A stretch of 64,000 nucleotides of DNA from Acytostelium subglobosum LB1 (lineage: Eukaryota; Evosea; Eumycetozoa; Acytosteliales; Acytosteliaceae), in NCBI RefSeq assembly GCF_000787575.1, contig NW_012236521.1:824924-888923 (forward strand), in the 5' to 3' direction. The notes beneath the pieces were generated by a model. That model was not told where the DNA came from. It ran no database searches and saw nothing but the letters and a program-made list of their open reading frames with translations. Made by a program: the position numbers and the translations under genes. This document shows positions 29,248 to 64,000 of this stretch, piece by piece; position 1 is the first letter of the stretch; each line of letters begins with the position of its first letter.

Positions 29248-32200
29248 TCATTCATCATCGGATAGGATATCATCCAGAATAGATACAATTGCATTGTCCT
29301 CACTATTCAATGGCTCTACAAGTGTGAACTTGGTCTTGCAGACATGTTCCAACAACTCTGCACAATTCTTAAGTATTGATTGATTCAATGTCATTGTTGA
29401 TGGTCTCTGTGATTGATTGATTGATTGATTGGTGATGGATGGTTAGTGCACTCAAACATGGTTCCTAACAAGTGGATACACTTACATTGAATCCAGGTCC
29501 ACTGTCTAGGACACCTTGGAATCCAATCTTTTGAAGGTGTTGTGCAATGATTGATTGTTGTTTGTCGTTTGAGGTGTTGGCCATGGCACGTGTTGGCATG
29601 GTAGAGTGTACAGAGTTCATTTGATCGACGATGTACAGTGCATTCTCGACAATCTTGTGATTGTCACAACTTCCAATCACACTGGATAGTCTTGGAACGA
29701 GCAAAGAGTATACGGTGGTGAACAGCTGTGCATTGTACTTGATACCCTCGCGCAGGATGTCAAAGACCAGCTGTTGTTCGGGCTCGCGATCTGTGTTGAG
29801 CAGGACTGTCACCAGGAAGCTGATCAACAGGTGCTCGTGATTGCCATCGACCAATGTCTGTGAGTTGAACAGTAGATGTCCTTCCGTGTTGCTGGCCGAT
29901 GCTGGTAGCTCGCCCTCAAATAACATCAATGCCGTGATGTATCCGAGCGTGGCGTTGTTTGTCGTCGAGGCCTTCTTGGCCATCACCAAGAGTAGTGTGT
30001 TGAGCAGGCGCATTGTGATCTCCTTGGTCGACGCGTTCTTGAGTCCCTTGAGACAGTGTGTAGCCAATGCGAACGACATGTTGTTGTCGAAGCTTGTGCC
30101 TGAGACCTGGCACACTCGGTCGATGATAGGTGCGCAGTCTGACTTGGCCGCCAGTAGCGTCTGATGAACATTGTCCTCGCCACCAAACAGCTCATACTCA
30201 TCCATTGTCTTGATGATTGTCTCGAGGAGCGTGACTGCCACAGAGTAGATGCGAACGTCATACACCTGCATGAAGAGTATGGCCACCCACAGGAGAGAGG
30301 GCAGCACCTTGGACTTGGCCGTCAGGTACATCTGCAGGTTGCTCAGTGCGTGCAGACCGCAGTACACCATATCGGAATGGGTGACAAGTGCGTTGGGCGA
30401 CTTGGCCGTCTGTGCCAACACTCCCACCACATCCTTTATGTTCTTCTCCTTGAACTGGCCAGCCTTGATGATGTTGCCCACTGTGATCAACGAGCGGCTT
30501 TGCACTGGCGGGTTGTTGGCGACTGCGGAGCGCACTGCCAGGTGTGTCCAACGCAGGTGCCACTGTTTCGAGCCATCATATCCATTGTCCAAGAACACCT
30601 TGAGTATTGAGAACAACATCTTTACAATTGGGTCCACATTGGACACTGGCATCTTCTCCATATCAGTCTTGATCCAATCAAGGTTAGTGGTGGAGCTGCT
30701 TCCAGCACCATGTCCATGAGATGTACCATGAGTCGGTCCATGATGTGAGCCATGTGTAGGGCCATGTCCATGAGATGCACCATGATGTGAGCCCTGAGCA
30801 CTATGATGGGCAACGTTGCCGCTGCCACTGGTGGCACTTGTGGCGTCGGTAGTGTGGATGCCAAAGAGGATGAGGAACTTTTGTTCGCCAAGCTGTGAGA
30901 TAAGGAAGGGGATGGATGCGAGACGTCCATCATTCGACACGAGCGAGTTGTAGAGTGAGTGCAAGGTGTTGATCAGGATATTGTACACGGCTAGACGGAC
31001 CAGGGCCGAGCCAACGCAGAACAGACTGGTGCCAAGATAGAGTATCTCGGGCAAGTACAATTGAGCGCACTCGGCATTGTCGAATGTCACGTACTGGAGA
31101 AGACGGAGGTAGGTCGCAATCTTGCTCCACAGGGGATGCTCTGACAGGTTGCCTCCACTCACCACTGGCTGTTGTGAGGTCTTCTCGAGCAGGCGCAACA
31201 GACGCGCGATCAGACGACCGCTTGTGGTCTTGGGTGCCGAGTATGAGATTGAAGTGATCATCTCACCGACGGCATCCGTGTGCTTGGGCTCGGGATACTT
31301 GCGGGCACAGCGACTGAGCGCCAGGCCGATCAGGACGTCGCTCTGCTTGCCAATGTTGGACCAAATGCACTCGTGAACGGATGGTCGCAATGCCATCTCG
31401 CGAACGGTCAGATCAATCATGATGTCCAATATGTTGACGGTCTTTTTGTAGCGGTTCATCAACTCGGCTGACGCGCTGGCAGGCGGCTTGGTCGCGTGCT
31501 TGGCCAAGTTGGCGATCCAGGGAGCGATGTACTCGAGCACCAGGAACTTGGAGCCCTGTGAAGCCTTGGTAATGCCGTGCAGTGCCTCAAGCAGGAACTC
31601 TAGCGCCAGGCCAGGTTGTAGACGAGCGACTCTCTCTGATATTTGAACGATCTGTTGGTTGCTATTGCGTGGAACAAACAGGCCGCACGTGTCCATGATG
31701 CGAGTGCCCTCGGCGAAACTGGAGTAGCGCGACAGTGCACCTAGCATGTTGTAGGATGACAATCGCAATGCGCTGAAGCTGCTGCCAATGTTGAGCAGGG
31801 CAATGTTAAGCAGCGTGCCAGGGATGTCTTGTGGGAGCACGCGGTTCGCCGGCACAGTGGCTATGCGGTTGGTCATGTTCCAGCGAGCCGTGCATTGGGC
31901 GATCGCCTGAAGGATCTGTGCACGCTGCGCGCTCCTGAACACCAGTGTCTGCTGCGGGTTCTGCAACTTCAGCTCAAACTCGTTCGCCTCCGACACGTTG
32001 TCCGTGCTGACCTTGAGCACGGTGCTGATGTGGTAGTTGTCAATCAACGCGCTTGATCGTCCCATGATAGAGTACAGCTTCATTGTGACCAGTTGGATGC
32101 TGTCGTTAGTCAATCGTAGCGTGTAGCTCTTCTCGCGATACTGTCCACTATTCTGAACGACGGGGGAGAACGACGCCTTGGTGTTTAGCTCGCTGTTGCG

Positions 32201-35200
32201 TGTAGTGTCAGGCAGGCCGTTGTTGGCTTCGTGAATGTGTTCAAAGATGCTGGAAGGGTTGGACGAGAACACCGTGTACTTGTGTGTCTTGGAGTTGGCG
32301 CCGATGATCTTGGTGATGGACTTGGCGTGCGACTTGACCAGATGACTGGGGTTGAGAATGAAAACGTGTCGCAGGCTGTCCGTCAGCCAGGCGGGAACAT
32401 GGCGAATCCACGTCGAGATCCAAGACAGCGGGATGATGTTGATCTGTGTGAGTAGTGAGCAATCCACCACGATGACGTAGCCGGTGGTAGTGGCGCTGCT
32501 GTGCTCCTTGATGGTCTTGAGCAACATGTAGTACATGTGCTCCTGGTCGATGGACGGGTCGAACCTGCGAGCGATGTAATAGAACACGGGCAAGTTGTCC
32601 TTGATAGTTGTGCCCTGGCAGTAGAACAATTTCTTCTGCTTTAAGTAGTCCAGGTTGCTGTTGTCATGCTTGCGCAGCAATGAGTCAAAGTAGTTTGTTG
32701 AGCCAGGCTCCCAGCCACCCGCCGCAGCGACTCCGCCAGGCGCGCCACCAGTAGGCGTGGGGAGGGCGACCTTTTTGCTCATTGGGGTGGGCGCTGGCAA
32801 GCTTGGCGCGCCAAGACTCGTGATGATCCTCTGCAACTGTTGTGCATGAGCCTTGTTTGTGGCCTCCAGAGCCTTAGTGATCTTGTCCAGTCCGTTGACA
32901 AAGTGGCTGTGGAGCAGGACTGTGTCCTCCTGCTTGGTGTCCCATGTAGGGCGTGCCGGCTCACTAGTCGTTGAAGCCTTTTGGTCTGGCGAGAAGGCGA
33001 TCAGCGCCTCGAATACGTGGTCCACCAACTTGGCATTTTCTGACACAAACGTGTTGAAGTTGTTCATGAAGGGCTCTCGAATGTTGTTGCCTGTGGCGTT
33101 GGAGCCGAGCTTTTGGAGCACCTTTGTGACGAGGAGAAGAGCACGTCTGTTCTCCTTGTTGAGCGCTGCGGCCGACGAAACGATGCCAAAGTTCTCCGGT
33201 GTGATGATGGCCGGACAGATGTACTTGAGGAAGAGGATGCCGATGATTGTGAGCTTCTCGGCACCGGGGAAGAACTCGTGCACTGTCTTGGAGATGTAGG
33301 CGGCAAGCTCCTTGACAGACGATGGAACGCTGCCCACCGTGTCATTGATCGATCGGATGAATTGGCGCGCCAAGATTGATAGACGTGCGACATTGGAATT
33401 GATATCCTCACCTGGGCCAAGCTTGGTGGGATCAATCTCCATCGACTCTTTGTTCGTGAGCAGCTTGTTGATCACGGGGAACAGAGCCTGCTTGAGGTAG
33501 GGTTGTCCAATTAGCTTGATGTACGAGGCAATCATCTTGCTTGTAAGTGTGTTGCCGCGGAGCATGGTGGCGGCGTTTGGTTGTTTGGTTGTGGACACCT
33601 CGTAGTGTATCATCTTCTTGAGGATGCTGATGGAACGATCGTTGGCGTCGTAGAAGTGGACCAGGATACGGGCTACTTCGTCCGACTCGCTGGCCTGAGC
33701 CAGCGCCACAATACCCTGATACTCTGGCTCCAAAAGGTAGTCGTAGAACTGCTGGTACTTGAGCTGCTCGGTTGTTTTGTTGTTGTTCATCTTGAATGAG
33801 GTCTGCGCTGCAAGTTGAGGTGTGCCACTTGCTCTTGCCATCGATGGCTGGCTACCCGATGCAACAGCCGTCTTGAAGGTGGTCTGTTGTGGTGGCGATG
33901 GCTGAGTCGTCTGGTTTTTAGTTTGTGTAGGACTTGATGATGATGAGGTGGAGGTGGCAGAAGCAGGCTGTTGTGGAGGAGGAGTACTTTGATTGAGAAT
34001 GTTGGCAATCATTTGAATGAACGAAGCCCTTGTCTCTGGGTCCTCATGATAGCCCATGTTGATAAAGTACTCCTGCCTCACGTTACTACTCAACATATTG
34101 TTCAAACATTGAATGGCACCATCAGCGATCTGTTTGCTCATCTCATTGCCCTGTAAGAATTGATTGATTGATTGGGGGAGAATGGTTAGAAATGATTCCA
34201 TGTCTCGCAAGTGGCACACAGGAGCACTTACATCTTGCTTGCACTTGCTCAACAGTGTGGAGAAGATGTTGAAGTACTTCTTGAAGGGGTTTGATCCACT
34301 TGAGTCGTTGGCTGGGAATACTAGGCCAGAGAGGAGTGAAGCCATTGAGGTGATGCATGAGATGTCAACGTCCTTGATGAGCTTGGCCTCAGCCATCCAT
34401 TCTCCTGCTGCTCCTTTCTGCTCGCTAACACTCTCACGTATGTTTGATTGTCCACTACCACCACTGCTGTTGCCACTACCACCTTCCACACGTGCATGAG
34501 TGTCCGCGCCATGTCCTTGACCAGGATGTCCTGGTATGATGGCATTGAATACTGTGGTCCACTCAATGATAGACTCAAGGACAGACTTGCGGAAGTCCAC
34601 AGAGAGGTTGATGACGGTGGGTCGCTGCGCAATGATGTCCAGGAGCGAGCAGAAGTTCTTCTTCATTCGCAAGCTGGTGGCGTTGAGTAGCAAGTGACCA
34701 ACATACTTGATGATGAACAACATCATGCTCTCGAGAGCAGGCGTGGTGGCCGCGTCCAGATCCTCGGGCTGCTGTGCTTTGTCAATTAGGTTCTTGAGGA
34801 GATTGATGGTCTGGTCGACAAAGAGCACGCATCTGTCGTTGCTTGGGTCGGCTGCGGGCTCGCTTGACGAACATACTTGTAGCTCGCTCATCAGATACTT
34901 GGTGAGCCACGACTGGCATGCGGGCGCCAGGGATGTGCCGACCAGGAGGATGGATGTCTCGCGCATGAACATGTTGTCGCTTGTCATGTGTTCGATGACT
35001 TCGTCCATGAGCATGCTGATAACTTTGACGCGATCCACATTAGCCGACACGACTGTTGACGAGGTGATCTTGCGACTCAGTCTGATCCTAGTCGTGAAGT
35101 TACCGATGGCTGCGTTGAGCGTACCAGTAGATGAGCTGGATGTGGGTGCCACAGCATGTGTCTCTTTGTTGAGCGTGATGTTGCCCAGACTGCAGAGGAA

Positions 35201-38090
35201 TCCCAGCATGTTCTTCCACTCTTGGCGAATCACACTGATTGGTCGTTTGGACCTGTCATTCGAGTCCTCCGTGCCGTTGGAAGCCATGATCAGCGGTGCC
35301 AGCAGAGTCCATCGTGCAAATACTTCCTCCCAAGCAGCAAAGTTACCGGTGGTAAGCTTGTGGATGCGACGTAGCAGTGAGCGGATAACCTTTTGCTGCT
35401 GCTGTTTTCCTGTGTGAGCCGAGCAAGATGTCGCCATCTTCTTGTATATGGCCATGTTGGCCAGGATGCCATTGCTGTCGTCTGAGCTCTCGCCCAGGAT
35501 TTCGATCTCCTCGCACAGCAGGCCGAAACAGTGTGCAACGCGGGAGCAGATGTCGCTCTCGCTAGAGCACAGGTGGATGAGAAGGGCAAACTCCAGCTTG
35601 GTGGTGCCCTGTTGGCGGGTGTCACGCACAGAGTTGTGCGGCAGCAGACTGTCACGCGACTTGAACAGGAACTCATTGCGGCGAGCCAGCACCTCCTGCA
35701 GCAGTATGAGCATGCGCTGTGTGTGCTCAAGTGATTGATCGCGATTGTCGATCAGTGAGTTTGCCAGCGACACGTTCACTGCTGAGCTGATCTCCCAAAA
35801 GCCATTGATCATCTTCTTCTCATACCATGACTCGACGTATGTTGGTTCGTGCAGCTTGAGCAATGTGGCCGAGGCCAAATCGACCAACTCCTGTGACAGT
35901 GTCTGCGACGCTGCGATCTGGCACAGGCCTACCAAGATCATCCTAATGTCTTCCAAGTCCTGGGCGGGTGATTTCTGGATGTTGGGGAAGTGAGGAAGAG
36001 AGGTTAGAGGTGGGGAAAAGGAGTCCAAAGCGAGCCCACATACCATGGGAATCAAGGAGAATGTAGGATCGACCTGGAAGAGGTTGATGATGAGTGTGAT
36101 TAGCTGGATATCAAATACAAGTCGCTCCTGTTGCTTCTTCTTGTCGTTGCTTGAGGCTGTCCTGATTGATTGGAGACATTCATTGAACATCTGCTTGAGC
36201 TGCATCGAGACAATGGGATAGACCTCTGTGAGAGTGGCGCACCATGGTAGGCGCGCACTGCTATCCTCGTCGTGACGCAGACGCAACAAACTCTTGAGCA
36301 ACACCAGTCGGTATTGGATTGAGATCTCATTGTTCATTAGGTCGGGCAGGATGCCGCGCAGTTTGCGCGACGATGTCTTGATGAGCGCCACGAGGAAGTC
36401 GGCCATCAGGTCGACCTCGGCAGGTGTCTCGGGTGGGCGCTGAGTGAAGCGCTCCTTGATGTCGGCCTCGATTAGCGAGGAGAGTGGCTTGACCGCCGAC
36501 AGGTCAGAGTCTGACACGTAGACAGACGCACGATAGATGTACACGTAGCACACCGAGACGACATCCGCCAGCTTGGGCTGCTTGGTGTACTTCTTCAGAC
36601 TGTCCAGGAATCGGCGTTTGACCGCCAGGTCACCGCCACCCGCACTGCCAGCCTTCTCGTTGCGATGCAGCTTGATCATCACATCCGGGCACAACAGCAG
36701 CAGAGTGGTCATGAGCGGCCACAGGTTGACCTTGTGTACCTTCTTCTTGGCCCATCCGTCGACAATGTCAAACAAAAGGTCGGGAGCGACCGACAGCCGC
36801 TCGCCCTTCTGTGACATGGATACAAACTCCATGGGGTGGTGATCGATCCAGTTCCAGATCGCCTTGCACAGTACCTGGGCCAGAGTGAACTGTTGTTTCT
36901 CGCGCCTGAACGAGCCGGCCGACTTGAGGATCTTCTCCAGTAGCTCGGCAAGCATGCGCGCGTTCAAGTTGGTGTGTTCCAGGAGTAGGAAGTAGTTGGA
37001 GAACTGCTCGTCATTGGGGTTGACACCGGCCACACTGTTTAGGCTGTTGCCGCTGTTGCCACCTCCCAAGCTACTGCTGATGCTGTTGCTGTTGCTACTG
37101 CTGCTTCCCATGTTGATGACCAAGTTGAGTGTTTCAATAATCCTCGTCTGTACTATATCATAGTTGGTGGCGGACAGCTGGTAGATCACTTGGCCAGATG
37201 ACAAGTGTGTCTCTGAGTCATTGGCCGATACGGCGCGTATCAGGCAACCCATCGACAAGTTCAATATACGTTGTGCCATTGAGTCTTGCAAGGGTGGAGG
37301 TAGAATCTGCTCCTCCTTCTCCTTCATCTGTGTTGTTGCGTGTGTCAGTATCCATTATCCATTAGTCGTCCTCATTGCCATGTATACTTACCCTCATGAT
37401 CTCCTTCTCATCTGTGATACGGCTCATCATCTCTTTGTATTGTCGTTTCTGTTCGGGGTCGAGGGCAAGGGTAGGGTTAGTCGATCGTTCACGTGAGGGT
37501 CACTCAACTCCGAAGACTTACAATATGTAGCCACTGATGTTCCATGCATCTAGCGAGCAATGAGAATGTATAGGCCAATGCCCATGAGTTGTGATCGCCA
37601 TTGTCACGTGAGTCTGTGTCTCTGTTGTTGTTGCCGCTGTTGCCACTGCTACCGCTGCCAATTCCACCACTTCCACTTCCACTGCCACTACCGCCGCCGC
37701 CAACACTTGTGGACTCTCTTCTCTTTGTAAGTGACTCTATGATATCTGCCAATCCATTTGCAACAACATTCAACTTATTAGCGCTGAGTTCTATCAATGT
37801 CTGTTCATTCTGTTTACGGATGCCGTTCTGCAGCATCTGATCATTGCTAATGAATCCATATGTCTTCTTATACTTTATCTACATTTGTTTGATTGATTGA
37901 ATGTTAGAGGTCATAAGTTCGCGGAAGTTTGTTGGACTTGTGGCGTGTGGCAAGGTGTGTGTCGTGTTTCCGGGCTGAAGTCGCCGTGTGGCGAGGTGAG
38001 TTTCCGCGCGGAAGTTGGGTGGTAACTCGATATTACCTGTACACTAAACCTGTTTATCAAGTCTGTTATCAACCTGTCCTCATTGTCCAT
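29248..38090 (-). CDS. nfaA: Neurofibromin-like RasGAP
   Basis: RasGAP that turns off Ras at the plasma membrane, controlling chemotaxis and macropinocytosis in dictyostelids. Exons 38090-38037, 37878-37522, 37448-37392, then 37327-29486 interrupted by introns at 36043-35975 and 34231-34151, then 29406-29248, give about 2772 residues. The N-terminal half is helical-repeat sequence. The GAP domain (about 1290-1550) has the arginine-finger loop LRGNTLTSK and FLKYICPAIITPENFG, where the usual FLR is FLK. The Sec14 domain (about 1670-1800, PVFYYIARRFDP and GYVIVVDCSLL) and a PH-like segment follow, then ARM/HEAT-like repeats. The start gives MDNEDRLITDLINRF, matching the neurofibromin N-terminus. 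Both large-exon introns are multiples of three without stops. Confidence 0.93.
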
Positions 38091-56288: not shown

Positions 56289-57591
56289 TCATTTGAATAG
56301 ATGACTGTCGCAATGCTTGACGAGGCTGGATGCGTGGACAATGTGTACTTTGAGTCCAGAGTCACGTGACATGGTGATGAGATGATTGGAATCAATCCAT
56401 CGAATGAATCCAATATCCCGTCGACCAAGTGTAATGCTTGTTATGTTGGCAACAATGAATCGTTGAACAATGGCAGTGCGTGGATATGTTGATTTGCGAT
56501 ACTTATTCATAACAAGAGTTTGAACATGTCCACCAAACAGATCATTATGTAGCAATGACAGTGTTTGTGGCATGTCGAAGGCTTCCACGATCAATCTCTT
56601 GATGCCAGCACAATGCAAGAATGTGTCTGGAGCGCAGTACGCCAGAAGGTCATTGCCAAAGCTGAGTGATGTGAGTGATCGTGGTATCAACTCGCTGAAC
56701 AGCGGCCGCTTGAACTTGTCGCCAATGAACAAGTGAGTGAGTGAGTCTGGGAGCAACGATGGTTGAAGTGGATGATTGAAATATTGACTTAGTTTGAGTG
56801 ATTGCAATGAATTGGGGAGGGACATCTCCAAAGGTTCATCATAATTGTTGCCCATGTCCAACCAGAGAAGTGATTCGGGTAGTAATCCTGGAGTCAAAGT
56901 CTGATAATGGTTGTGGCTTAGCTTGAGTCTTGTTAATGACGCGGGGAGTGCGTTTGGGGAGATGTATGAGAAGCCATTGTTCAACCACAGACTCGTTAGT
57001 CCAGAGGGTAGCGCGCCCCGTTCGAGACTGTGATTAAAGCGCATGCCCAAGTTCAGTTTGATGAGGGAGGCGGGCAACGTGTCTGGAATGATGTAGCAGT
57101 TGAATGAGGCCATAATCAAGGTCTTGAGCGATGATGGTAGTGAGTGTGATTGAAGTGGTTGATTGTAGCCACCAGTGTACATCATCGTCAGAGATGATGG
57201 TAGTGCATCAGAGATGAACGGTTGATCATAACCTTGTCCTAGCCACAACTCTTTTGTTGAGGTTGGGATGATTCCAGGCACAAATGGGTGATTGTATGCA
57301 TGGCCCATCCAAAGCCAGAGGATTGATCGTGGTAGTGATCCAGGCTTAAGTGGTTGATTAAAGTCATCACTCAATGATATGTTTGTTATCGTTTCAGGTA
57401 TATCACCTGGTTCGATCATATTGTTGAATGTAGCATTCAAAGTAGATTGTGTTGACCTCTGGTATGTAGTTCACTTTGGACAACGATCCATTATATGCCC
57501 CATTGAATGTAACACCAGTCTCACCATTAGCATATGACTCCAACTCATAAGGTTGGTCATCAAACTTTGGCTCAATTGTCACACATGGCAT
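56289..57591 (-). CDS. FNIP-repeat protein
   Basis: Leucine-rich-like FNIP repeats, a family hugely expanded in dictyostelids; function unknown. The main frame (57440-56289) has about ten units of the type FNQPLKPGSLPRSILWLWMG, YNHPFVPGIIPTSTKELWLG, YNQPLQSHSLPSSLKTLIM and FNHPLQPSLLPDSLTHLFIG, then a non-repeat tail. The only in-phase ATG upstream begins MPCVTIEPKFDDQPYELESY at 57591, in a different frame that overlaps 57403-57440; NTIYFE there would lead naturally into NATFNNMIEPGDIPE of the main frame. I found no splice pair that joins them, so either a small indel or an unusual first exon separates them. Confidence 0.7.
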
Positions 57592-57741
57592 ATCTGAGTG
57601 TAGTTTGTTTGTACAAGCGTCAGTAAGTGGTGTGTGGATGACTCATCGCCGCTGGCTTCGCAACATTACGGAGCTGGCGCTCCTTCATTTCAGACTTCCA
57701 AATTCTCTTCTCCTTATAGTTTTATATACTTTAACATTAAC

Positions 57742-57901
57742 AAAAAAGGTATCTGTATCAAGTAATGTAGAATTGTAGTAGAAATAGAGACTTTAAGTTC
57801 AAAATATTAGAATTCCATTAGTCCTAATTAAAGAAGGTCCTCTTCCAAATTCTACTACAATTCTACTTTCAGTACCTGTCACCGCCATAGCAGTGAGCAC
57901 G
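57742..57901. repeat. Hairpin repeat, copy 1
   Basis: The unit contains a perfect inverted repeat: GTAGAATTGTAGTAGAA at 57767-57783 and its reverse complement TTCTACTACAATTCTAC at 57850-57866, with a 66-nt loop that includes TTAGTCCTAATTAAAGAAGG. Copy 2 lies 163 bp further on. No terminal duplication or open frame is visible. It could be a foldback element or encode a structured RNA. Confidence 0.65.
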
Positions 57902-57904
57902 TTG

Positions 57905-58063
57905 GAAAAAGAGTATCTGTCTAATCAATGTAGAATTGTAGTAGAAATAGAGTTTAGAAGTTCAAAAAAATAGAATTAATTTAGTCCTAATTAAAGAAGG
58001 TCATTTTTGTAATTCTACTATTATTCTACTTTCGGCTCCTGTTAGCGCTGTAACGGTTTGCTC
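57905..58063. repeat. Hairpin repeat, copy 2
   Basis: Direct repeat of copy 1. The left arm (57930-57946) is identical; the right arm (58013-58029) has two changes. The loop core TTAGTCCTAATTAAAGAAGG is conserved exactly, while loop flanks and the 3' part have drifted. The left arm and loop core being best kept suggests they matter most. Confidence 0.6.
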
Positions 58064-58236
58064 GCCCAAGAGAGTTACCAGGAGAGTACTCAGCACGTTG
58101 ATCCAGCACGTACTTCCGATTCGTTCACACACTGTTCACCGATTGTTCACCACGAGTTCACCAAAACAACACCAAACATACACCGAGTGTGGTTGGAGCA
58201 TGGACTGGGGACTGTTGGAGGGTGACGGGTTTATTG

Positions 58237-60160
58237 TTACAACTCAAAGAGCAATGCGTATTGTGTGATCTTCTTGACCTGGGGTGTCAGTTTGACATCT
58301 TTGGTCTTGGACGTTGTGAGGTAATGTTGTTCCTTGAAAGAAGAAAATTGGTCCTGGGGAAGAACGAAATAGAGCTCTACGTTTGCCACTGTAGCTCCAA
58401 GTTGATCAACAATACTGGTCAGTTCTTTCATCAGAGGCGGATGATCTGCTGATACTGTTACTTGGAACAGCTGATTGGGCTTGATCAAGCTATCGATGGC
58501 TGGAAAGTTGGAGAAGCTGGGCACAAGATATATGTTGTCCAGAGCTGGACCAATATCGGTGATTGACTTGATGATCGCTGATGAAGATGGCCTGGGGAAT
58601 GTAATGGTGTCGACAAGGTTGGTCTTGAGGGCTCTTCTCTGGAATTGGCCTCCATGTTCCTTCAACTGTCGATGCACTACGGCCTCTAGGAATGACCCTC
58701 CAAGTGGTGAGTGAAGGAATCTGGGTACTGAAAGATGACTCTTGACTTGTTCCAAGTTCTTTTCCGCGATTGCGTTGGCCACCTTGCTGGCAACATACTT
58801 GGATGAGAAACGAAGAACCATTGCACCATACTTTGGAATGCCACTGATGTCGATCGGGATGATTTGAATGATCTTGTGACTGCCTGGTGCTTGTGGGTCC
58901 TCCTCGCCAACGCTCTTTGCACATGTGTCAAGGTCAAGTGTTGTGATTCCATTCTCGAGAGAGTGTTGGAAAGCTGCATTGACTGCCTTCTCCAAGACAA
59001 AGCGTGGAATGCCACCCCACTTTAGCCAAAGATCCTCGAGAGTTGCCTTTGTGATCGTTGGTCAGTGATGCATGTTTGGGTATGTAATTAGAATGAATAA
59101 CATACCTGAGGCACTTGAGGATACAAGAGGGGTTTGACATGGTCAAGCTCATCCTTCTCCCAGGGGGGCATAAACATGCGAGTGGTACGATCGTTCTTCA
59201 GGAACTCCTTGTACAGTGCTGGATCGGGGGAAGACACAATGATTGTCTTGGCAGCGGCATTGGACACCTTGAGACTGTCAACCAAATAGTAGGTGGACTT
59301 CTTGGTGAGGTAGGGAATCACAAGCTCTATTGGTCCACGGTTGACAATTGGTGTTCCATTCCCATCGAAAGTGTAGAGATAGAAGGAATGTGCAGAGTTG
59401 GAATGAATGGAGTGGACCACGAGCGGAGCCTTCTTCTTTGCGATCTCCAGCATCAGATAGTAGAGGAAGCATGACTTTCCAATGCCAGGGGTGCCAGTCA
59501 CGACAAATGAGCCGTAGATTGGATCTGGTGGTGGTGGCGCCGAGCTTGACGCAGATGCAGAGCCAGGTAGTGTCGCGATTCCTTCGTATCGGTCAAACTG
59601 GGCAAAGATCAGATTCTTCATCTCCTCGTAGCACTCTCTCACGTAGAGTGATGATCTCTTGGAAGGGTTTCCCAAGAAATGCAAGCCATTGGGAAGGGTG
59701 AGTACCATGGATGTTGGATCGATGGCACATGTCTGAAGGGCAACCCAAAACGACACGTTCTCTGTCTCGGCTATGGAACGATATGTCAGTATCGACCTCA
59801 CACATCACTCGCTCTCACTTCTACTTACGCGCTTGGCCACCACCTCCTCCTGCAGCACCGGCTTGAGTGTGTATGTTAGTATTGAATGAAGACATTGCGC
59901 CGATGTTGTTTGTACTTACGAGCTTGGGCTGGGTGTGCGATATTGAACAAAGCAGTTGCGATGCCAGCAGTGAGACCAAAGGATCTCAATTGATCAACTG
60001 ATGAGAGGCGAATGGTCAAACCATTGATCTTCTGAGTGTTGATGGTAATGGTGTCGGGATCATCCTTCTCAAGCTCAAGGTGCTTGATAAGATCAGCGGG
60101 TGTTGTCTTATCGGTGAGAATGAATGGAGATGGAAGGGATGTTGATGATGTCGAGGTCAT
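58237..60160 (-). CDS. Crinkler/RHS-like NTPase with REase-like C-terminus
   Basis: Four exons in phase (60160-59920, 59861-59829, 59770-59106, 59046-58237) give 582 residues. Residues 10-75 resemble a SAM-type header (INGLTIRLSSVDQLRSFGLT). The NTPase domain has the Walker A loop VTGTPGIGKSCFLYYLML, TYYLVDSL, IIVSSPDPALYKEFLKN and MFMPPWEKDELD, then LWLKWGGIPRFVLEKA; this set is typical of Crinkler and trypanosome RHS proteins. The C-terminal part has GSFLEAVVHRQLKEHGG and LFQVTVSADHP, as in restriction-nuclease-like folds of this family. There is no signal peptide, so the protein acts inside the cell. Exon 2 is a 33-nt Gly-rich microexon. It looks intact. Whether it acts in conflict with parasites or in host chromatin is unknown. 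Confidence 0.75.
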
Positions 60161-60270: not shown

Positions 60271-60366
60271 CTATGATATCATGAGTAGTAGTGCTTTGAT
60301 GTATGCTTTGTGACGTTCTCTGAACTCTGAGTTCTCGTCCCAATAGTACTCTTTGAATAATGACAT
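60271..60366 (-). CDS. Putative 31-residue ORF at the edge of the virus-like segment
   Basis: An ATG frame reads MSLFKEYYWDENSEFRERHK and ends after ALLLMIS. Its composition is strongly protein-like, with the Y..ENxEFRERHKAY pattern seen in small viral and phage proteins. It lies between the Crinkler-like gene and the polymerase-like gene. Too short for certainty. Confidence 0.3.
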   Translation of the reverse strand: MSLFKEYYWDENSEFRERHKAYIKALLLMIS

Positions 60367-60501
60367 GTTATATCTGTTAGAGATAAATTGCTTAATTTGA
60401 TTTATTTGTTTATGAGATTCCAAAATACATCCACAAGCAGTTGATGGCCAACAAATAGGTTCAAAGTGATATAAATTAACATCTAAGTGTTAATATATAG
60501 A

Positions 60502-62436
60502 ATGAGTAGATCAACCAGAGACATCGGCGGCAGACTGAAGAAGACGGGCGTGACCGAGATCAAGCTCACAGGCAACTACACCAGAGCAGACATCGAACGA
60601 ATCGCTCAGCGAGACAGCAACACGCTCCAACGATACGGCGCCAACGCAAGGATAGAGGCCGTGCTCGACTACGGCAACCATCAGTATCGCTCAGGCAAGT
60701 TCACCAAGGTAGGCGAGCCGATCATCATGTTTGATCCTCACGAGTACGATGGCGCGCCAATCCCAGAGCCTGACACATTCAAATCGTTCTACATCTACGT
60801 ACATCAGGCAAAGGGCAAGGCGGGAGGCTGCGACGGCGAATGGAACAACTGTCTCTATTACTGCCTCCTCGATGCCTATCCCGAGCAGGTCACTGAGCAC
60901 TTCGGCAAGCCATCGCGCCTCAAGATGTTCCTCGGCCTTGATGTCAAACAAAAGGTGTCAATCAAGGGAATCGCAGAACTCGAGGAGAGACTCAACATCA
61001 GAATCAACGTCAAAGGTGATCACTGCTACGCCTCGCCCAGCAAGGCAACCAGAGAGGTCAACCTGATACTAACCAACACGCACTACAAACTAGACAAGGA
61101 AGGCACCTATGCAGGCAAGGGCATTAGATACACTCGACACAACGAGAGGGACGTCTACATCAAGCCAATCGTATTCAAGTATCTCAAAGGCGAACAGGTC
61201 CAGCTCTACGATGACGGCGATTACACGACCATCAGCCTAGAGCAGTTCATCAACAAGAAGAGGCACAAGTACCAAGACAAGTGCGAGTACATCCGTATCC
61301 TCTCAGGCATGACCCTGGAGGAGACATTGGACTCGTTCAAGGCCGACGCCGACATGCTAAAGGAGGGTACTAACGGCATCATCAACATGTACACAACAGG
61401 ACAGAACATCAACAAGGCTGCGATCAAGCTGTTCCTCTCGTACAACAAGACGGTCAAACCAGAAGCCATCAAGCAGGACGAGGGCGAGTGGATCCTCAAG
61501 GCATCATGTGGACCAATGATGATGGCGATGCAGTTCACAGGTCCACTCTACAAGTATGACATCAGCAAGATGTACGCAGCGATCATGAAGAGCGGTGGCT
61601 TCATGGTCCCAATCAAGTGCGGTGACTTCCAGCATCTGACCGACAAAGAGCTCAGTGCAATGAGGACTATCCCATTCGGTATCTATCGCGCCACGATCAA
61701 CGGCAAGCACGGCGCATTCAAGACCAACAAGAATGAATACTACACTCACTACGACCTCATCTTTGCCAAGGAGCTAGGACTATCATTCAACCTCAAGTGT
61801 GACGAGAAAGCGAATGCATTGATCTACAACAGCAGCTGCAGGATCAATGGCTCCATCCTATTCGGCAAGTACATGGATCAGGTTCTCAGCTGGATCAAGG
61901 CTGGAGTCCCTCGATCAAAGGAGCTCTATCAACGCCTCTGGGGTGCTCTCTCCAAGCGCAACAAGATCAAGGAGCACAGCGAAATCGAGAGCCCTGTGGA
62001 GATGATCAAAGCAGATGGAGGAGAGAGAGCCATCAGGCATTTCTTCGTTGGCAAGGACGAGGAGAGCGACAACGAGAGCCAGACCAAAGATGAATACTCC
62101 ATTGATCGCATCCATCCAACACCCAATAGCAACGCGATGGTCAAGGCAGCATGCGACACCAACATGTTCGACACGCCATTCGCTCGCATCATGCCATTCA
62201 TCATCTCTCGTGGACGCAAGATGATTGGAACGATAATAAAGGACGACATTGACTGCATCAAGCGTGTGCACACTGATGGATTCGTCTCGACCAAGCCCTG
62301 GACTGTCAAGACTGGCAAGAGGTCACTCGACTACCCCAAGTTGGGCAAGGAGTGTGGCGACCTGCGATACGAGGGCTACTGTCCCAATGCCATTGTCAAC
62401 AACATGCTCAAGCCGGTCGGAGAGTTTGTAATATAA
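60502..62436 (+). CDS. Family-B DNA polymerase-like protein of the element
   Basis: Open frame of 644 residues from the ATG at 60502. The motif A region reads LYKYDISKMYAAIMKSGGFM, and the metal-binding motif C reads RVHTDGFVST, the D-T-D-type site of protein-primed family-B polymerases. The N-terminal third has a Cys-containing segment (GEWNNCLYYCLLDAYPEQ) that recalls the extra N-terminal domains of Polinton and virophage polymerases; that is inference. It is GC-richer than neighbouring host genes and has no introns. It is shorter than full Polinton polymerases. Rolling-circle or host polymerase identities were considered and fit less well. Confidence 0.6.
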   Translation: MSRSTRDIGGRLKKTGVTEIKLTGNYTRADIERIAQRDSNTLQRYGANARIEAVLDYGNHQYRSGKFTKVGEPIIMFDPHEYDGAPIPEPDTFKSFYIYVHQAKGKAGGCDGEWNNCLYYCLLDAYPEQVTEHFGKPSRLKMFLGLDVKQKVSIKGIAELEERLNIRINVKGDHCYASPSKATREVNLILTNTHYKLDKEGTYAGKGIRYTRHNERDVYIKPIVFKYLKGEQVQLYDDGDYTTISLEQFINKKRHKYQDKCEYIRILSGMTLEETLDSFKADADMLKEGTNGIINMYTTGQNINKAAIKLFLSYNKTVKPEAIKQDEGEWILKASCGPMMMAMQFTGPLYKYDISKMYAAIMKSGGFMVPIKCGDFQHLTDKELSAMRTIPFGIYRATINGKHGAFKTNKNEYYTHYDLIFAKELGLSFNLKCDEKANALIYNSSCRINGSILFGKYMDQVLSWIKAGVPRSKELYQRLWGALSKRNKIKEHSEIESPVEMIKADGGERAIRHFFVGKDEESDNESQTKDEYSIDRIHPTPNSNAMVKAACDTNMFDTPFARIMPFIISRGRKMIGTIIKDDIDCIKRVHTDGFVSTKPWTVKTGKRSLDYPKLGKECGDLRYEGYCPNAIVNNMLKPVGEFVI

Positions 62437-62732
62437 TCTCTACTTCCATCATAATGGACGTAAAGACAGAGATAGAGGACTGGAAACAGATGTATCGCTT
62501 TACCGTCATCTGTCAAATCCACAATCCTTGTGCCACGGCCGGACGTGGAGATGGCATAGTGTTGTATTAGTTGTTATGATTAAGGGGCATTCGTGCCTCA
62601 TAATTATTTCTTTCTCTGCAGCACGTTCCGCACCCTCTCTCTCCCTTAAGTCTACTGGTCTAGAGCACATCAGAAGCGCACAACATCACACTCCGTGTTT
62701 CTCAACACGATACCTACACCAAAGGATCATTA
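62437..62732. other. Gap between convergent element genes
   Basis: About 300 bp between the polymerase-like stop and the protease stop. It contains C/T-rich runs and no credible frame. The position suits shared 3' ends and transcription stops of two converging gene blocks. Confidence 0.35.
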
Positions 62733-63245
62733 TCACAAGTAACCAAACTTCTTGTATCTCTCCTTCATCTCTCTCGCCTTCTTCTCCTCCCTCCTCACAT
62801 CACTGTAGCCAGTCGCCTCTTTGAACGGCACGCCTCGATATCTGTTCAACAGGAAGCGCATGGCATGATACCCGCACGTGTCGGTGTTGGTGGCCTGGTC
62901 GATCACTCGGTTGACCTTGAACTTGAGATAGACGTCTGGGTCGATCTCTCTAACCAACTCCTTCATCCTCCTTAGGAAGTCAGTGCTGGGATCATCACCA
63001 AACGAGTCATAGTACTCGATCGACTTGTCGCCCTTGGCATCGATGTTGCAGGCAACCCAATGACTGCCCGGCTGGTTGCTCTTGTCCAGGTTCATGATGA
63101 ACGACATGCGCTGTTTGGGTTCCAACTCATCCAGTTGATCACTCGCGATGACGCCCTCGAACCCATCCTTTGCGTACGGCTGCATCAGCTGTACGATCTC
63201 ATAGTCATACAATCCACCATCCTTGCGCCCGCTGCCCTTCCTCAT
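62733..63245 (-). CDS. Adenain/Ulp1-like cysteine protease of the element
   Basis: 170 residues from the ATG at 63245 (MRKGSGRKDGG). The catalytic layout of C5/C48 proteases is visible: His in GSHWVACNID, the acidic partner in IEYYDSFGDDPS, and Cys in NTDTCGYHAMRFLLNRYRG. In adenoviruses and Polintons the homologous enzyme matures virion proteins. The start codon overlaps the stop of the upstream frame in an ATGA arrangement, so the two are probably co-expressed. Host SUMO proteases of this superfamily are usually longer and have introns. Confidence 0.7.
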   Translation of the reverse strand: MRKGSGRKDGGLYDYEIVQLMQPYAKDGFEGVIASDQLDELEPKQRMSFIMNLDKSNQPGSHWVACNIDAKGDKSIEYYDSFGDDPSTDFLRRMKELVREIDPDVYLKFKVNRVIDQATNTDTCGYHAMRFLLNRYRGVPFKEATGYSDVRREEKKAREMKERYKKFGYL

Positions 63246-63997
63246 GCCTTTGACTTCATTATAAATAGAGTCCAATTCTGTCTTTCTCTGTGGCCCTTGA
63301 ACACCTTCTTTAACTCATTGTACAGCTGTTGTGAGGCGATGTCGCTGTCGTAGTATTGCTTGACAAACTCCAACACTTGAGGTGCCAGTGACGTTGGGAT
63401 TGGTTTGAGAGAATCCATTGCCTGTAGTCTCGCCATCGTTCCTGCTTCTGATATCAGTTCTCTCTTGAGTTTATTTCTCTCCTCATAGGGCACGTTCTTC
63501 AAGTCCTTCCCTAGGTCATAGTTGAGGTTATTGATTGGGTATCCTGTGTCCAAGTAGTGCTGCACTGATACCATGACCTTGGGTGTCAACTCTGCTGGTA
63601 TCGCCTTCGTTGCCTTGAGACTGGAGGATGTGATCGAGACTCTCCTGTTGTTGTTATTGTTATTGTTGTTGTTGACTGCTGTTGACGTTGTCGATGCTGT
63701 TGTCGTCGTAGTTGATGTTGTTGGATGTGGAGGCGTACTGTAAGGAGACGGCTCGTCAATAGGCTCTGACTTTACCTTGGGCATGGTGCTGGGCATGGGC
63801 TTCCTGAGTCGTGATGGTTGTGGTTGCTTGGGCTGCTCTGACACGATAGAATGCAATGTTGCCATCTCCTTTATCGCTTTCTGTTTGTTGGTTTCTATCT
63901 CATCCATCTCGCGCTCATGTATCTGCTCATTGATAGTCTCATCCAGCACCTTCTTTGTTTGGGCATCCTCCAATTTCCGCTTGGCTACTTCGATCAT
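63242..63997 (-). CDS. Basic coiled-coil protein with an internal repeat (element gene)
   Basis: 251 residues from the ATG at 63997, but the frame may continue past the window. Residues 1-60 are a charged coiled coil; 60-125 are Pro/Thr/Asn-rich; then two related units follow, IPAELTPKVMVSVQHYLDTG (about 138) and IPTSLAPQVLEFVKQYYDSD (about 202), each continued by a basic helix. I do not recognise the family. Its place just upstream of the protease suggests a structural or protease-substrate role, which is inference. Confidence 0.5.
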   Translation of the reverse strand: MIEVAKRKLEDAQTKKVLDETINEQIHEREMDEIETNKQKAIKEMATLHSIVSEQPKQPQPSRLRKPMPSTMPKVKSEPIDEPSPYSTPPHPTTSTTTTTASTTSTAVNNNNNNNNNRRVSITSSSLKATKAIPAELTPKVMVSVQHYLDTGYPINNLNYDLGKDLKNVPYEERNKLKRELISEAGTMARLQAMDSLKPIPTSLAPQVLEFVKQYYDSDIASQQLYNELKKVFKGHRERQNWTLFIMKSKA

Positions 63998-64000
63998 TGC

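What the first reader, a model, noticed from the sequence alone, without database searches (positions are those of the whole stretch)
60271..64000. Virus-like (Polinton-like) segment in an amoebal genome
A polymerase-like gene with family-B motifs A and C and a C5/C48-type protease, both intron-free, lie together at the window edge. Polinton-type elements are sparsely described in social amoebae, and the polymerase N-terminus with its Cys segment looks unlike a standard exonuclease domain. Only part is in view.
Basis: partly seen in the sequence, partly recalled or inferred. Interest (0 to 1): 0.75.

Follow-up and report, generated by a model that had tools for sequence, protein, structure and literature searches.

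The report
Decayed Polinton in a slime mould
The end of this window holds a damaged copy of a virus-like jumping element (a Polinton) that is repeated many times in a social amoeba, and its DNA-copying enzyme appears to be of the unusual proofreading-less type described for the virophage mavirus.

Summary
The window comes from the social amoeba Acytostelium subglobosum, and its right end is the left part of a Polinton/Maverick element. The element starts earlier than reported, at a terminal repeat (57630-58195), and runs off the contig. A contig overlapping it by 1,122 b carries capsid-gene remains and a cut-off packaging ATPase. Three interior copies read at both ends have inverted terminal repeats and perfect 6-bp target duplications. 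Genes spread over the copies encode an rve integrase, superfamily-3 helicase (interrupted in both copies seen), ATPase, double jelly-roll capsid protein, protease and polymerase. Polintons of this species are already in print. What I found stated in no paper searched is the polymerase's build: 644 aa, best and near full-length structural match the 617-aa mavirus polymerase (Foldseek E 4e-44), vOTU Cys/His and polymerase residues conserved, but little room for an exonuclease and no invariant acidic residue in that stretch except one near the palm. A 2024 analysis called this layout unique to mavirus and proposed that a helicase compensates; here it occurs in a true Polinton with a separate helicase gene. 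The window copy is truncated and its protease frame is broken.

The parts
57624..57629 (.). Flanking hexamer TAAGTG, candidate left target-site duplication (right partner not found)
   Evidence: Position directly outside the terminal repeat; the search for the right partner did not complete.
57630..58195 (+). Left terminal repeat, starts 5'-GTGTGTGG, homologous to the inverted repeats of the C21 and C46 copies; the right repeat of this copy is not known
   Evidence: blastn 85.7% to the C21 repeat over 568 columns; 92.5% over 107 columns to C46; 23 termini genome-wide with up to 3 mismatches allowed, 0 for the reversed pattern.
58237..60160 (-). Gene between terminal repeat and polymerase, apparently with three short introns; P-loop NTPase with sub-threshold similarity to RHSP; putative cargo or inserted host gene
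   Evidence: ORFs 58237-58995, 59088-59801, 59876-60160; intron junctions read by eye; Pfam RHSP 3e-4, below cut-off.
60502..62436 (+). [quoted passage not shown]
   Evidence: at least 74 matching stretches in the genome.
60850..60852 (+). vOTU Cys117 codon
   Evidence: Invariant in the 8 aligned homologues; position; role by analogy with PMC11071308.
61081..61083 (+). vOTU His194 codon
   Evidence: Invariant in the 8 aligned homologues; position; role by analogy with PMC11071308.
61558..61560 (+). Polymerase motif A Asp353 codon
   Evidence: Invariant in the 8 aligned homologues; position.
62275..62277 (+). Polymerase motif C Asp592 codon (HTDG)
   Evidence: Invariant in the 8 aligned homologues; position.
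62733..63275 (-). Ulp1/adenain-type maturation protease domain
   Evidence: Peptidase_C48 4e-9; ASFV S273R 8e-7; residues H72, D90, Q127, C134.
63242..64000 (-). N-terminal part of the protease polyprotein, in another frame than the protease here, continuing past the window
   Evidence: One continuous 720- or 722-aa frame in C46 and C25, two frames here; 100% match to C26:62-817, 97% over 198 aa to C39:650962-651555.

Best explanation
This is the left part of a truncated, decaying copy of a multicopy Polinton of Acytostelium subglobosum. More complete relatives are 18-20 kb, with inverted terminal repeats and 6-bp target duplications (shown by sequence), which an rve integrase would make (gene shown, act inferred). 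They would replicate by protein priming (inferred): the N-terminal domain of the polymerase acts as terminal protein at the repeat ends, the vOTU domain cuts it free, and the palm domain copies the strand. The polymerase appears to lack the proofreading exonuclease (supported by predicted fold, length and conservation), and a separate superfamily-3 helicase gene next to the other repeat would supply unwinding (gene shown, though interrupted in both copies seen; role inferred). DNA would be packaged by the ATPase into double jelly-roll capsids matured by the Ulp1-like protease (capsid fold predicted with confidence, virions inferred).
Against: The right end of the window's own copy was not found; C26 carries no listed terminal repeat of this family. 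Pfam found no domain in the window polymerase itself; 3 of 13 relatives hit DNA_pol_B_2. The mavirus match covers nearly the whole length but as rigid bodies the models differ (TM 0.56/0.58, rmsd 20.5), so domain order rather than overall shape agrees. The terminal-protein domain rests on position and secondary structure; whole-model searches barely tested residues 1-200, and the OTU match in the PDB is weak (3von, E 0.31). I did not see which residues align to the phi29 exonuclease. The helicase frame is interrupted in both copies with a full right end (155+473 aa in C46, 375+254 aa in C25). No expression or virion data.
Confidence: 0.85

Rival explanations
1. Same element, but it is chiefly an integrated virus (or virophage) that still makes particles, not a transposon; the copies are leftover proviruses.
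For: Morphogenesis genes with a double jelly-roll capsid protein; 6 capsid-protein relatives of 42-48% identity, from unnamed jgi/lgn/ena sources that I take for metagenomes, sit on contigs of up to 5.6-19 kb, 3 of them near 18-19 kb; mavirus-type polymerase.
Against: No transcript, particle or helper-virus data; those contigs could be amoeba DNA; the IMG/VR scans with polymerase and capsid profiles confirmed no relative.
Confidence: 0.35
2. The missing exonuclease is an artefact of decay or of a wrong gene model in this copy; the family has a normal polymerase.
For: The window copy is damaged elsewhere (protease frame; cut-off ATPase in C26).
Against: Five copies, the window's included, match over residues 1-644, the other four at 81-84% identity; three of the five have no internal stop. 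A Cavenderia protein and four unnamed relatives of 595-747 aa align from the vOTU through motif C without room for an exonuclease; the mavirus enzyme is 617 aa.
Confidence: 0.05
3. Contigs C45 and C26 hold two different young copies, so the window element may be complete elsewhere.
For: The overlap is not perfect and C26 has no listed right terminal repeat. Another contig end, C39, holds a copy 97% identical over 198 aa of the upstream frame, so close copies do exist.
Against: The 99.73% match is a dovetail of exactly the last 1,122 b of C45 with the first 1,122 b of C26; the C21, C46, C47 and C53 copies differ from C45 by about 10-14% in the same region.
Confidence: 0.12
4. Two unrelated host genes that only look viral.
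For: Pfam names only a general Ulp1 protease family above cut-off.
Against: Multicopy, next to terminal repeats, linked in sister copies to capsid, ATPase and integrase genes between repeats with target duplications.
Confidence: 0.01

Closest known systems
Polintons of Acytostelium subglobosum and Heterostelium album (Bellas and Sommaruga 2021, PMC7805220)
   Same: Same host species, called 'Polintons'; their capsid protein was said to be related to the VC20 group of PLVs (one passage).
   Different: I could not tell whether the elements they counted include this copy; the passage says nothing on exonuclease loss.
Mavirus (virophage) polymerase
   Same: Best viral structure match over nearly the whole length, similar length (617 vs 644 aa), E 3.9e-44; reported as TP-vOTU-palm with only an exonuclease remnant, with a separate S3H (PMC11071308, passages).
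Protist Polintons whose PolB groups with mavirus (Yutin 2013, PMC3671162, section 6 read)
   Same: A strongly supported clade of mavirus with a group of protist Polintons was reported; the legend of the tree lists Dictyostelium fasciculatum and Polysphondylium pallidum.
   Different: I did not see the figure, so I cannot say whether the dictyostelid sequences are inside that clade. The word 'exonuclease' does not occur in that text.
Tlr1/PLV/transpoviron polymerase-helicase proteins
   Same: Also lack the exonuclease and carry a helicase (PMC11071308, passages).
   Different: There the helicase is superfamily 1 and fused; here superfamily 3 and separate.

Membership tests
[quoted passage not shown]
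Polinton/Maverick | rve (retroviral-type) integrase | tested here: met
   Pfam rve 9.6e-8, 32.7 bits against a cut-off of 32.6, in the C25 copy; homologous frames in C46 and C21. Not seen among frames of 110 aa or more in C26:1-20000.
Polinton/Maverick | Ulp1/C5-type protease | tested here: met
   Peptidase_C48 4e-9.
Polinton/Maverick | packaging ATPase | tested here: met
   PHROG terminase large subunit 2.9e-5 for the C46 copy; Pfam hits only below cut-off.
Polinton/Maverick | double jelly-roll major capsid protein | tested here: met
Polinton/Maverick | minor capsid (penton) protein | tested here: inconclusive
   A 277-aa frame beside the capsid gene has no profile match above cut-off; named by position and recalled pattern only.
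Polinton/Maverick | terminal inverted repeats and 6-bp target duplication | tested here: met
   3 of 3 copies read at both ends; for the window copy only the left repeat is known.
Exonuclease-bearing (canonical) Polinton polymerase | 3'-5' exonuclease domain with three carboxylate motifs | tested here: not met
   158 residues between vOTU His and motif A, no invariant acidic residue in 195-326; near full-length match to the 617-aa mavirus enzyme. A residue-by-residue superposition was not available.
Mavirus-like virophage | TP-vOTU-palm polymerase without exonuclease | tested here: met
   the TP part is inferred from position.
Mavirus-like virophage | virophage-type capsid protein | tested here: inconclusive
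Mavirus-like virophage | dependence on a giant virus | not testable with these tools
   Needs infection experiments.
Polinton-like virus (PLV, sense of Yutin 2015) | no maturation protease, generally no rve integrase | tested here: not met
   Protease and rve integrase are present; criterion from PMC4642659 passages.

The most novel reading that the evidence does not exclude
Loss of the proofreading exonuclease happened in a Polinton lineage of amoebae or other protists before mavirus arose. Dictyostelid Polintons and mavirus share a TP-vOTU-palm polymerase by descent, so mavirus took its replication module from such a Polinton and changed capsids and helicase. The separate superfamily-3 helicase would then be a further instance of the proposed exonuclease-for-helicase trade. 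In addition, the slot between left repeat and polymerase carries differing genes in four copies (window, C21, C46 and C53; none in C25), which would make it a cargo site that picks up, among others, NTPase genes.
Probability: 0.5. Interest if true: 0.55.

Novelty: new variant of a known kind. Interest (0 to 1): 0.42.

Why it matters
A 2024 structural analysis (PMC11071308, passages seen) called the exonuclease-less layout unique to mavirus, and proposed that exonuclease and helicase compensate for each other. A true Polinton with the same polymerase layout and its own separate helicase gene gives that idea a further case and a direct test: fidelity and strand displacement of the amoeba enzyme with and without its helicase. 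It also points to where mavirus may have got its replication genes.

Tried and rejected
Rejected: ordinary host genes (linked capsid, ATPase and integrase genes, terminal repeats); PLV in the strict sense (protease and rve present); exonuclease loss as decay of one copy (five collinear copies and distant relatives).

Led nowhere: IMG/VR scans with the polymerase and capsid profiles matched 14 and 12 stretches, none confirmed; tblastn of polymerase and protease against phage records found nothing; PDB sequence searches with the polymerase and its profile found nothing. A second protein search with a profile added only 2 proteins, both of the same species. A PHROGs scan gave only a chance-level holin hit (E 0.029) for the polymerase. 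The right partner of the window's flanking hexamer and the genome-wide counts of the helicase and of the cargo gene could not be obtained. A first dN/dS run was wrong for the three minus-strand copies and was redone. In one search no OTU or terminal-protein fold is listed, but residues 1-200 were barely tested there. The window NTPase and that of C46 match only around the P-loop (E 0.016), so the cargo genes are not shown to be one family; the C46 and C53 cargo proteins were not compared with each other.

Full report
What is in the window. The window is C45:824924-888923 of a 30.7-Mb genome in 56 contigs and ends 305 b before the contig end. Database relatives of the polymerase on contigs of the same lengths as contigs of this genome are named Acytostelium subglobosum LB1. 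In this genome the polymerase gives at least 74 matching stretches, the protease 21, the upstream frame 14, so this is a repeat family.

Boundaries. Copies on C46 and C25 are bounded by inverted repeats. The C46 type of end recurs at window 57630-58195, 2.3 kb left of the polymerase, so the element begins there and not at 60271. A 32-base pattern of the terminus has 23 matches genome-wide with up to 3 mismatches allowed, 13 forward and 10 reverse; the reversed pattern has none. Three copies were read at both ends and all three have a perfect 6-bp target duplication: ATTAAC (C21), CCTTTG (C46), CCCGAG (C25). From these coordinates C46 is 18.0 kb and C25 20.5 kb, the latter including two insertions that look mariner-like by eye. 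C21 spans 32.3 kb, including a 12.0-kb assembly gap and frames that look retroelement-like by eye.

The window's own copy. The last 1,122 b of C45 match the first 1,122 b of C26 at 99.73%, a dovetail that makes C26 the likely continuation. Against this, a copy at the end of contig C39 is also close (97% over 198 aa of the upstream frame). C26 then carries capsid genes in pieces and an ATPase cut off near 5.3 kb, followed by host-like genes, with no terminal repeat of this family listed. In C46 and C25 the protease is the C-terminal part of one 720- or 722-aa frame; in the window it is split over two frames. So the window copy is truncated and decaying, although its polymerase frame is open.

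Literature, and what I saw of it. PMC7805220 (one passage): 'Polintons' in A. subglobosum and H. album with a capsid protein related to VC20 PLVs. PMC4642659 and PMC4409740 (passages): A. subglobosum polymerase in trees (legends). PMC3671162 (passages and section 6): mavirus PolB groups with a set of protist Polintons; dictyostelids are in the tree, but I did not see the figure and cannot say whether they are in that set; some Polintons have a superfamily-3 helicase of the phage/OLV branch. PMC11071308 (passages): TP and vOTU domains; mavirus layout called unique; loss of the exonuclease goes with gain of a helicase; 'dictyostel', 'amoebozoa' and 'acytostelium' occur 0 times. PMC12721341 (passages) treats another fusion. 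PMC10120064 (passages) mentions Amoebozoa capsid genes without naming dictyostelids in the main text. PMC12220804 (passages) and PMC10328495 (term search, no occurrence) add nothing on dictyostelids. PMC5289972 (passages) was read for the RHSP/Crinkler link. My searches brought up no paper in which I saw the exonuclease-less layout stated for dictyostelid Polintons; I did not open every paper listed, and most subscription papers and all supplements are outside what I could read.

Verdict. The element belongs to a kind already known from this species. The addition is that its polymerase appears to have the mavirus layout, with a separate superfamily-3 helicase gene, in an element that meets the Polinton criteria tested (the minor capsid protein stayed inconclusive). 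Whether this is shared descent or a parallel loss needs a tree that I did not build, because canonical eukaryotic sequences were not at hand.

Noticed in passing
window 58237-60160 (-); C46:993307-994779; C53:1433963-1435600; C21:77600-78595: The slot between left terminal repeat and polymerase holds differing genes: an intron-bearing P-loop gene (window), a 491-aa and a 546-aa AAA-like frame (C46, C53; not compared with each other) and a 332-aa frame without a match (C21); the C25 copy has no such gene. Family matches are below cut-off.
   Followed up: partly
G000 C25:103275-108740: Inside the C25 element two 1,601-b transposons (mariner-like by eye), 100% identical and in opposite orientation, flank a 2.3-kb integrase segment that is inverted relative to other copies.
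   Followed up: no
G000 C28:135429-140350 and C54:1515549-1520143: Short copies of under 5 kb in which two terminal repeats flank a polymerase match, perhaps internally deleted derivatives.
   Followed up: no
window 57743-58048: The terminal repeat itself contains a direct repeat of 144 b (82% identical); C21 and C46 repeats also contain inner repeats.
   Followed up: no
window 29465-37327 (-): A single 2,620-aa open frame with RasGAP and CRAL-TRIO domains (neurofibromin-like, recalled), in a GC-rich stretch of 0.51-0.55.
   Followed up: partly
window 56289-57440 (-): A 383-aa frame of FNIP-type repeats (recalled name) just outside the element.
   Followed up: no
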